From Bacteroidales bacterium (GTDB lineage: Bacteria; Bacteroidota; Bacteroidia; Bacteroidales; WCHB1-69): a stretch of 44,970 nucleotides of DNA. Location of the stretch: positions 1-44,970 of the forward strand of contig JAFZWE010000005.1 of NCBI GenBank assembly GCA_017617445.1, in the 5' to 3' direction. Positions within the stretch are counted from its first letter, which is position 1. Every line of letters begins with the position of its first letter. This document shows, piece after piece, positions 22,226-23,260 of this stretch. Below the pieces are notes generated by a model. That model ran no database searches, was not told the DNA's origin, and saw only the letters and a list, made by a program, of their open reading frames with translations. The translations under genes and the position numbers were made by a program.

Positions 22226-22705
22226 TCATTGAACCATTTTCACCACCTTGAAAGATTTCAATAGCTGCTTGCCGTTCAACACATTTACAAAATAGGTGCC
22301 TGGGGCAAGGTTTGACATTGGGATTTCTGTTGTACACTCTTCTATTTTCTTTGAAAACAAGTGTTTCCCATTCATGTCAAACACAGTCACTTCTCCTTCC
22401 AACTGTATATTGTCCATTATCAACTGGACATTTCCAAGCGTTGGATTAGGATATACTACAGCATTCAATGCGATGCCGGGGTAGTTGTCAATTCCGATGG
22501 TTTGGATTTCAAAAGGCTGCTGTACTCCCTCGGAAATGCTGACACTGGCATCCCCATACGACTGCACGGCGATTTGTCCGATGGTGTAGGTGACCGTTCC
22601 CCCACTCCCCGTTGCCGTTCCTCCCAGCGGCACCACATCAGACTGGGCGGAAAGAGATACTAACAAACTGGAAATCAAAATTAAAATAGCAATACTCTGT
22701 TTCAT
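22226..22705 (-). CDS. Small secreted protein with T9SS type A sorting domain
   Basis: The 159-residue protein has a signal peptide (1-20, ending SLSAQ), a short region of about 50 residues rich in Gly/Thr/Ser (TATGSGGTVTYTIGQIAVQSY), and a complete C-terminal sorting domain from about residue 84 (YPNPTLGN to the final Gln). GTVTYTIGQ-type N-terminal motifs are common in small Bacteroidota cargo proteins. The export signal makes up most of the protein, so it may be a minimal or surviving fragment of a larger cargo. It starts about 100 nt downstream of the terminator of the candidate ncRNA. Confidence 0.82.
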   Translation of the reverse strand: MKQSIAILILISSLLVSLSAQSDVVPLGGTATGSGGTVTYTIGQIAVQSYGDASVSISEGVQQPFEIQTIGIDNYPGIALNAVVYPNPTLGNVQLIMDNIQLEGEVTVFDMNGKHLFSKKIEECTTEIPMSNLAPGTYFVNVLNGKQLLKSFKVVKMVQ

Positions 22706-22803
22706 ATCCTGTAATATGTGATTCGTTATTTCATTACTCCATCAACCACTTCCACCTCAGGTAATTCCAAGCCGGACTTTCTATATTTTACATAAAGACA
22801 CAT

Positions 22804-22842
22804 AAAAAAGCGCGGGAACCGAGTTTCATCGCTCATCCCGCG
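22804..22842 (-). terminator. Terminator of the candidate ncRNA
   Basis: Arms 22836-22842 and 22811-22817 (CGCGGGA/TCCCGCG in transcript sense) pair perfectly, with an inner GAG/CTC extension, and are followed by C and a run of six T (22804-22809). The arm 22840-22842 is shared with the closing helix of the RNA, so the two structures exclude each other there. Confidence 0.85.
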
Positions 22843-23068
22843 TATCAGGCTCTGGTATCGCCCATCTCCTAAGGATAAGCAATGCCGAAGCCCACGCTGT
22901 CCGTATATTATAAAAAGAATATACAAACCAATGGACATTGAACATTGCCTTACCGTGCAGGAGATTTGAATTTACCAGATTCGATACGCCGCAGATAAGA
23001 CGTTGACTCAACGCCTTTTAAACATGTCTGTCGCCCACCTTCCACCCATTCGGGCTTCGGAACGAACA
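22804..23068 (-). ncRNA. Candidate structured non-coding RNA of unknown class, about 265 nt
   Basis: This gene-free stretch has a promoter box (TATATTTG, 23075-23082) and an intrinsic terminator (22804-22842). Between them a long hairpin can form. Pairs, in plus-strand coordinates, are 22983-22989/22840-22846 (7 bp), 22973-22980/22850-22857 (7 of 8), 22959-22965/22864-22870 (7 bp), 22943-22954/22873-22884 (10 of 12), 22933-22937/22898-22902 (5 bp) and 22918-22924/22903-22909 (7 bp, 8-nt loop). A separate 9-bp hairpin is at 22997-23005/23009-23017. The 5' end (23052-23060) pairs perfectly over 9 bp with the internal loop at 22885-22893, a likely pseudoknot. Signatures of tmRNA, RNase P RNA and SRP RNA were looked for and not found. 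A 6S-like RNA or a leader controlling the gene at 22705 are alternatives. Confidence 0.6.
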
Positions 23069-23074
23069 ACGGGG

Positions 23075-23082
23075 CAAATATA
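23075..23082 (-). promoter_or_regulatory. Predicted -7 box of the candidate ncRNA
   Basis: TATATTTG on the minus strand matches TAnnTTTG. Transcription would start near 23068. A clear TTTG -33 box is not seen; TTTTCC lies at about the right distance. Confidence 0.55.
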
Positions 23083-23170
23083 CAATTTTTTGGAAAATTA
23101 AAAAGGAAAGTGAAAATTATGAGAACCCATATTCTTTATCTCCTATAAGGAGAGGATGATTGCCCTAAGT

Positions 23171-23200
23171 CTCCTGAAAAACATCCCCAAGAAATAATAA
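23171..23200 (+). repeat. 30-bp direct repeat, copy 2 (remnant of a pepD 3' end)
   Basis: This intergenic stretch is identical to the 3' end of pepD at 19368-19397, but there is no gene in front of it: the bases to the left do not resemble pepD. It is followed by a different terminator hairpin. Confidence 0.95.
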
Positions 23201-23220
23201 CCGAATTGGATTTTACGAAA

Positions 23221-23260
23221 AGAGGCCGACCAAAATCACTTTTTAGTCGGCCTCTTTTTT
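23221..23260. terminator. Bidirectional terminator
   Basis: A perfect 10-bp stem (23221-23230 AGAGGCCGAC / 23246-23255 GTCGGCCTCT) is followed by T runs in both directions. It serves the minus-strand gene ending at 23260. On the plus strand it stands where a terminator for a gene ending at the pepD-like remnant would be. Confidence 0.88.

What the first reader, a model, noticed from the sequence alone, without database searches (positions are those of the whole stretch)
22804..23082. Candidate new structured ncRNA with own promoter, long hairpin, pseudoknot and terminator
A gene-free 265-nt stretch on the minus strand has a TAnnTTTG promoter box and an intrinsic terminator. Six consecutive helices (5-12 bp) form a long interrupted hairpin, with a side hairpin at 22997-23017. 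The extreme 5' region 23052-23060 is perfectly complementary to the internal loop 22885-22893 over 9 bp, which would make a pseudoknot. No hallmark of tmRNA, RNase P RNA or SRP RNA is present. A 6S-type RNA is possible, but a 5' pseudoknot is not a usual 6S trait.
Basis: partly seen in the sequence, partly recalled or inferred. Interest (0 to 1): 0.8.

Follow-up and report, generated by a model that had tools for sequence, protein, structure and literature searches.

The report
New RNA switch family in Bacteroidota
The stretch is one copy of an intricately folded RNA, absent from the RNA family library searched, that sits at the front of messages for many different, often secreted or surface, proteins in Bacteroidota bacteria and probably acts as an on/off switch whose trigger is unknown.

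Summary
In detail: promoter box, side hairpin, long helices, 9-bp pseudoknot and U-tract end are at the stated places, and the fold beats all 200 shuffles. No Rfam 15 family reaches its cut-off on it or on the relatives tested. Homologues abound: a model of the window's 'long' form matches 65 of 393 genomes of its order; a model of a 'compact' form matches 142 of 393 and 56 of 395 across the phylum, up to 22 matches per genome. On 73 long copies, 94.3% of 4549 pair cells form standard pairs (38-42% when slid), with 474 double changes. The 'long hairpin' is a four-way junction with kissing loops plus a 5' pseudoknot. A same-strand ORF of 60+ aa starts within 260 nt of the U-tract in 127 of 133 copies (divergent control 68 of 129). 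Best reading: a cis-acting attenuator leader (orphan-riboswitch-like) in which the strand before the U-tract and the folded domain compete for one internal strand. The effector is unknown, no expression data were seen, and an independent sRNA or an antitermination role is not excluded. It is not 6S by the tests run.

The parts
23075..23082 (-). -7 promoter box TATATTTG (TAnnTTTG)
   Evidence: a TAnnTTTG lies in the 100-nt upstream window of 119 of 138 thinned long copies
23030..23070 (-). 5' module: P1 (GUUG 23067-23070 with CGAC 23030-23033) enclosing the 5' strand of pseudoknot PK1 (23052-23060)
   Evidence: P1 91.3% and PK1 88.9% of assessable cells paired over 73 copies
22997..23018 (-). 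P2 side hairpin
   Evidence: 94.0% of cells paired, 5 of 6 counted pairs with double changes
22840..22989 (-). P3 junction-closing helix (22983-22989 with 22840-22846)
   Evidence: 95.5% paired, 6 of 7 pairs with double changes; own partner beats the swapped median in 135 of 138
22968..22982 (-). hairpin hp1; loop UCUGGUA 22973-22979 kisses hp2
   Evidence: kissing loops 99.6% of cells paired, 5 of 7 pairs with double changes
22848..22862 (-). hairpin hp2; loop UACCAGA 22851-22857
   Evidence: stem 98.6% paired, 1 of 3 pairs with a double change
22866..22963 (-). P5 arm, including conserved strand b (GCGUGGG 22891-22897) and the 3' strand of PK1 (22885-22893)
   Evidence: lower P5 95.9% paired, 6 of 6 pairs with double changes
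22811..22842 (-). terminator-like hairpin: CGCGGGA 22836-22842 with UCCCGCG 22811-22817; the 5' arm overlaps the P3 extension 22832-22838
   Evidence: 335 of 360 cells paired; own beats the swapped median in 99 of 138
22810..22816 (-). strand c (CCCGCGC), also complementary to strand b
   Evidence: a helix of 6 bp or more between c and P5 in 136 of 138 long copies, conserved rather than covarying; 59 of 65 compact copies beat the swapped median
22804..22809 (-). U-tract
   Evidence: U-tract and enough flank found in 170 of 174 copies
22757..22776 (-). downstream hairpin whose loop (GGAAUU 22763-22768) pairs with GGUUCC 22815-22820 (PK2)
   Evidence: 6 aligned pairs 88.6% paired, 3 with double changes; own beats the swapped median in 111 of 138
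22226..22705 (-). downstream gene, T9SS type A sorting-domain protein (159 aa)
   Evidence: Por_Secre_tail E 4.2e-12, TIGR04183 E 4.4e-13

Best explanation
A cis-acting structured leader: an attenuator of riboswitch-like logic. Shown by sequence and covariation: promoter box, P1/PK1 module, P2, P3-closed junction with kissing hairpins and P5 arm, a terminator-like 3' end with U-tract, then (in long forms) a hairpin whose loop pairs with the strand before the U-tract, then an ORF on the same strand. Shown: the strand before the U-tract (c) is complementary to strand b inside the folded domain, and b also pairs inside the domain, so these pairings exclude each other. Inferred: when the domain is held (by a metabolite, nucleotide signal, protein or other factor), b is unavailable, transcription reads through and the gene is on; otherwise c captures b (or the adjacent arm) and transcription stops, giving a short RNA of about 265 nt. 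Inferred: in read-through messages the downstream loop holds c and keeps the terminator from reforming. The copies would make a regulon enriched in exported proteins. The signal and its polarity are unknown.
For: Covariation: 94.3% of cells paired, 474 double-changed cells against a shuffled mean of 142 and at most 109 when slid. Strand: 420 G-U against 71 A-C cells, so RNA of this strand rather than DNA. Leader position: same-strand ORF of 60+ aa within 260 nt in 127 of 133, 100+ aa in 116 of 133; divergent control 68 and 50 of 129. TAnnTTTG between U-tract and ATG is not above chance (7 of 132 against 4.9 expected). b:c helices up to 14 bp in compact forms, 59 of 65 beat the swapped median. 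PK2 joins sequence on both sides of the U-tract and covaries in long forms, so read-through RNA matters. Homologous T9SS genes in one genus carry either form. Hydrophobic N-termini (crude test) in 42 of 56 first downstream ORFs of 250+ aa against 134 of 348 other ORFs of that size in the named loci.
Against: No transcript, 3'-end or reporter data were seen. Downstream genes share no pathway (93 clusters among 132 proteins). Random same-strand start points meet the 60-aa ORF test in 270 of 414 cases, so the base rate is high. The structure tested was drawn partly from the same copies, which favours it over slid versions, and shuffles ignore relatedness. PK1's double changes are one copy at each of two pairs. 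The P3 extension shows no double changes and no excess over swapped partners (72 of 138). b:c in long forms does not beat swapped partners (50 of 138). PK2 is weak in compact forms of the order (34 of 54) and absent outside it (4 of 16). Without pseudoknots the fold with c free is a median 8.9 kcal/mol better than with b:c forced (49 copies), so polarity is open. A simple terminator scan found none in the window.
Confidence: 0.6

Rival explanations
1. An independent, trans-acting small RNA ending at the U-tract, with the downstream gene served separately or by leakage.
For: Own promoter box, compact stable fold, terminator-like end; intergenic sRNAs with start site and terminator are reported in the phylum (passages of PMC9723704 and PMC7366714).
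Against: Same-strand gene bias, no second promoter box above chance, PK2 reaches past the U-tract in long forms.
Confidence: 0.17
2. A processive antitermination leader (working like put or EAR RNAs, recalled): the folded domain acts on RNA polymerase itself, without a ligand, and lets it pass the leader and later terminators.
For: Very diverse downstream genes, invariant internal sequences such as GCGUGGG, a terminator-like end inside the leader.
Against: The b/c strand competition looks like a local switch; no RNA polymerase or Nus link was tested.
Confidence: 0.13
3. A mobile promoter cassette or MITE-like repeat whose fold serves DNA mobility.
For: Multi-copy, patchy; homologous genes with and without it; partial copies with only the 5' module (L018, L020, L028); one partial blastn match on a mobilizable plasmid.
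Against: G-U over A-C asymmetry, fixed orientation before ORFs, kept pairing despite divergence across families; the window copy has no match in the plasmid or phage collections. Target-site duplications were not tested.
Confidence: 0.05
4. A 6S-type RNA.
For: Length and long helix with bubbles.
Against: RF00013 and RF01693 not found in the own genome, which is about 80% complete (6S rang in 5 of 14 controls, Bacteroidales-1 in 1 of 14); kissing loops and pseudoknot; many copies per genome.
Confidence: 0.02

Closest known systems
Orphan riboswitch / transcription attenuator leaders in general
   Same: 5' position, structured domain followed by a terminator-like end and an ORF, mutually exclusive pairings
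   Different: No ligand known, no Rfam family matched over cut-off, downstream genes share no pathway, and a loop beyond the U-tract pairs with the terminator strand
DUF805 and DUF805b RNAs (Rfam RF03081, RF02914)
   Same: Cis-regulatory motifs; a match lies between this RNA and the start codon in 6 of 20 compact loci scanned and downstream of it in L221
   Different: 35-68 nt; they match the stretch downstream, not this RNA
Flavo-1 RNA (Rfam RF01705)
   Same: Hits reported at 5' regions in Flavobacterium psychrophilum (passage of PMC9723704)
   Different: 76 positions; no match in the own genome (where no control genome rang either) and none at E up to 0.5 in 18 loci from the phylum-wide search
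6S RNA and Bacteroidales-1 RNA (RF00013, RF01693)
   Same: Promoter-to-terminator RNAs of similar length (recalled)
   Different: Not found by covariance search in the own genome
Rfp18 and structured 5' regions of Flavobacterium psychrophilum (PMC9723704)
   Same: Conserved structured RNAs in the same phylum
   Different: Sequences not seen (supplements not readable here), so overlap is unknown

Membership tests
6S RNA (RF00013) / Bacteroidales-1 (RF01693) | Match to the covariance model | tested here: not met
   on the own genome; on the window
Flavo-1 (RF01705) | Match to the covariance model | tested here: not met
   no control genome rang
DUF805 / DUF805b (RF03081, RF02914) | Match to the covariance model within the element | tested here: not met
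   matches lie outside the element, downstream
Any Rfam 15 family | Match at gathering score over the element | tested here: not met
   window and 70 distinct loci (L239 among them has no full copy); sub-threshold overlaps only, e.g. SurA 21.3 bits against 100
Riboswitch (as a kind) | Position in the 5' leader on the coding strand | tested here: met
Riboswitch (as a kind) | Conserved structure with mutually exclusive terminator and anti-terminator pairings | tested here: inconclusive
   exclusive pairings exist; which one is functional was not tested
Riboswitch (as a kind) | Direct binding of a small molecule | not testable with these tools
   needs in-line probing or binding assays
Processive antitermination RNA | Modification of RNA polymerase beyond the leader | not testable with these tools
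   needs distant-terminator reporters or pull-downs

The most novel reading that the evidence does not exclude
A single, phylum-wide RNA switch class of Bacteroidota, in interchangeable compact and long forms, reads one unknown common signal (a second messenger, or RNA polymerase/ribosome state) and controls a large regulon of surface and secreted proteins through a three-way strand exchange (domain, terminator strand, downstream kissing loop) that matches no leader family I could test.
Probability: 0.35. Interest if true: 0.92.

Novelty: new variant of a known kind. Interest (0 to 1): 0.8.

Why it matters
If right, Bacteroidota, a dominant phylum of guts and rumens, carry a common leader RNA, with up to 22 matches in one genome, that Rfam 15 does not hold as far as tested. 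Its copies precede T9SS-exported proteins, leucine-rich-repeat and FISUMP proteins, sigma factors and, by eye, SusC-like receptors, so its signal would be a broad input to the cell surface. The model makes exact, testable pairings and gives a search model for existing transcriptome data.

Tried and rejected
6S and Bacteroidales-1: not found. Flavo-1: not found, but no control rang either. Plasmid and phage blastn with the window copy: no match. With a compact copy from another genome of the class (L345), one plasmid record, 49% of the query at 78.7% identity (Rhizosphaericola mali pB3-10); its gene table shows nothing annotated there and a hypothetical CDS starting 92 nt downstream on the same strand. 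With another compact copy (L293), none. Viral contigs: three exact patterns, none (exact patterns are insensitive). Protein-coding origin: core length modulo 3 is spread evenly, though open stretches are longer than in shuffled sequence. MITE: held unlikely on orientation and G-U asymmetry; target-site duplications were not tested. A partner-swap test used over-long segments for PK1 (90 of 138) and is weak there; PK1 rests. PK2 as a universal feature: rejected outside the order (4 of 16). Literature: ten searches; their listings, and passages of PMC8040213, PMC9723704 and PMC7366714, were seen; none of these describes this RNA. Supplements could not be read, so an unnamed entry in such lists is possible; the 2017 motif survey of Weinberg and colleagues is recalled only, not seen.

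Rows dropped or chosen: L096 (chance pattern match in Paraburkholderia) was left out of the counts. L159 was left out of all later counts because my script read the wrong place in it; one search shows that it does hold a full copy. 4 of 174 long copies lacked a detectable U-tract or enough flank; 138 of the remaining 170 were kept after thinning. A3 holds 73 of the 75 copies listed (core up to 210 nt, drawn from the 112; the diverged families are mostly not in it); L038 and L053 were left out because their 5' halves diverge, but they are in A1 and so in model R1. 6 of 55 compact loci had no kissing pair by the script or a misplaced one, and 2 of the other 67 no U-tract. Of the 30 loci, 20 were given to the models; 10 weaker ones were not.

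Full report
Check of the observation. Its fold is far better than shuffled sequence (z -4.27, 0 of 200). No tRNA or tmRNA and no Rfam family over its cut-off lies in the window; a permissive scan of 22700-23260 gives 12 hits below cut-off, 11 of them outside the element.

Relatives. A DNA search of 60 genomes found matches in 12, several with 2 to 6 matching stretches. An exact pattern with 20 fixed bases met at least 119 stretches in the named genome collection; of the 80 listed, 79 are titled as Bacteroidales, Bacteroidetes, Bacteroidia or members of these, 1 is Paraburkholderia. A covariance model of the long form (R1) matched 65 of 393 genomes of the order, 37 of 207 genera, and 3 of 395 of a phylum sample. 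Searching the window's downstream gene in its genus showed that homologous genes carry a shorter version of the same RNA. A model of that compact form (R2) matched 142 of 393 genomes of the order, 89 of 207 genera, 25 of 41 relatives with up to 22 matches per genome, and 56 of 395 genomes of the phylum sample: 4 of the same order, 38 of other orders of the class, 14 of other classes. R2 also recovers long-form copies and, weakly, the window copy (22.3 bits, E 0.0024, filters off), so I treat both forms as one family; the counts from R1 and R2 overlap. The own genome (about 80% complete) holds five compact matches besides the window copy. E-values from these models are rough, no negative control outside the phylum was run, and matches were not all inspected.

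Structure. Over 73 full-length long copies (A3) a structure of 66 pairs has 94.3% of 4549 cells in standard pairs, 474 cells and 32 pairs with changes on both sides; sliding the partners by 1 to 3 columns gives 38 to 42% and at most 109 such cells, and none of 500 shuffles reaches the observed values. The structure was drawn partly from these copies and shuffles ignore relatedness, so the size of the covariation, not the bare excess, carries the weight. The strongest parts are P3 (6 of 7 pairs with double changes), lower P5 (6 of 6) and the kissing loops of hairpins hp1 and hp2 (99.6% of cells paired, 5 of 7). So the long hairpin is a four-way junction closed by P3, with two kissing hairpins and the P5 arm, plus a 5' pseudoknot. 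G-U cells outnumber A-C cells 420 to 71, which points to RNA of this strand.

Competing pairings. The strand before the U-tract (c) can pair with the adjacent arm (local terminator hairpin), with strand b inside P5 (window: GCGUGGG with CCCGCGC), and with the loop of a hairpin beyond the U-tract (PK2). In 65 compact copies the best b:c helix averages 9.5 bp, reaches 14 bp, and beats the median of swapped partners in 59. In long copies a helix of 6 bp or more is present in 136 of 138 but is conserved rather than covarying (50 of 138 above the swapped median). PK2 covaries in long copies (111 of 138; UA to AU changes), is weaker in compact copies of the order (34 of 54) and absent outside it (4 of 16). 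The P3 extension, which would block the local terminator arm, is 96.7% paired but never changes on both sides, and 72 of 138 beat swapped partners.

Leader position. Of 133 long copies with enough flank, 127 have a 60+ aa ORF on the same strand starting within 260 nt of the U-tract and 116 a 100+ aa ORF; upstream divergent controls give 68 and 50 of 129, and random same-strand points 270 of 414 for the 60-aa test. The median gap from U-tract to ATG is 67.5 nt over 132 copies, and a TAnnTTTG in that gap is not above chance (7 against 4.9). In compact loci of the order 45 of 49 have such an ORF within about 400 nt (counted; no control). The downstream proteins are diverse: 132 fall into 93 clusters; of 128 scanned, the commonest Pfam family is the T9SS sorting domain with 9; FISUMP (7), leucine-rich-repeat adhesin (5) and sigma-70 (5) models recur. 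Hydrophobic N-termini by a crude test occur in 82 of 136 first downstream ORFs, and in 42 of 56 of 250+ aa against 134 of 348 other mechanical ORFs of that size in L031-L149. In 7 of 18 copies from the phylum-wide search the next ORF looks SusC-like by eye, but lies farther away, about 220-370 nt. A partial blastn match on the Rhizosphaericola mali plasmid pB3-10, unannotated, precedes a hypothetical CDS by 92 nt.

Turnover. Homologues of one downstream gene family (first seen at L002) in seven other relatives (8 loci, L225-L232) show no match to R1 or R2 in the stretch held. Of 20 loci homologous to the window's T9SS gene, 8 have a compact copy, 2 a long one (one is the window itself) and 10 none by these models. 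Partial copies with only the 5' module also occur. Leaders thus appear to be gained, lost and exchanged.

Mechanism. I commit to a cis-acting attenuator of riboswitch-like logic (0.6): a held domain keeps b from c and allows readthrough; otherwise c completes a terminator. Sequence and covariation show the parts and the exclusive pairings; the switching, the effector and the polarity are inferred. A crude energy comparison without pseudoknots favours the fold with c free by a median 8.9 kcal/mol in 49 compact copies, so a default-on state is possible. Rivals are an independent small RNA, a polymerase-directed antitermination leader, a mobile promoter cassette and, much less, 6S.

Novelty. No Rfam 15 match at or above cut-off was found on the element in eight searches, which covered the window and 70 distinct loci (one locus, L239, has no full copy). 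DUF805 or DUF805b motifs lie between the element and the start codon in 6 of 20 compact loci, which may tie those motifs to this leader. Ten literature searches found no description; supplements and closed papers were not readable, so an unnamed earlier entry cannot be ruled out.

Noticed in passing
L279, L283, L305, L313, L314, L341 and L221: DUF805 or DUF805b Rfam motifs lie about 40-135 nt downstream of this RNA, before the start codon; these orphan motifs may be part of the same leader system.
   Followed up: partly
L018, L020, L028: Partial copies carry the promoter box and 5' module but not the junction, directly before a sigma-factor-like, a Fic-like and an RHS-like ORF (read by eye).
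   Followed up: partly
L293 (same place as L259), L295 (same place as L249), L296, L300: In the window's genus, compact copies are followed by another conserved stretch before the ATG that looks like a long hairpin (TTTGTG...ATTACAAA), read by eye.
   Followed up: no
L294, L298, L300, L313, L315: A palindrome GACAACGCATGCGTTGTC (one base different in L313) sits just upstream of P2 in several compact copies of the genus.
   Followed up: no
window 23218-23260: A strong inverted repeat with A and T runs (AAAAAAGAGGCCGACTAAAA...TTTTGGTCGGCCTCTTTT) between the upstream gene and this RNA looks like a two-way terminator.
   Followed up: no
L330:12-94: A match to the sRNA rteR (RF04181, 79.6 bits against 72) about 1.4 kb from a compact copy, suggesting a conjugative-transposon neighbourhood.
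   Followed up: no
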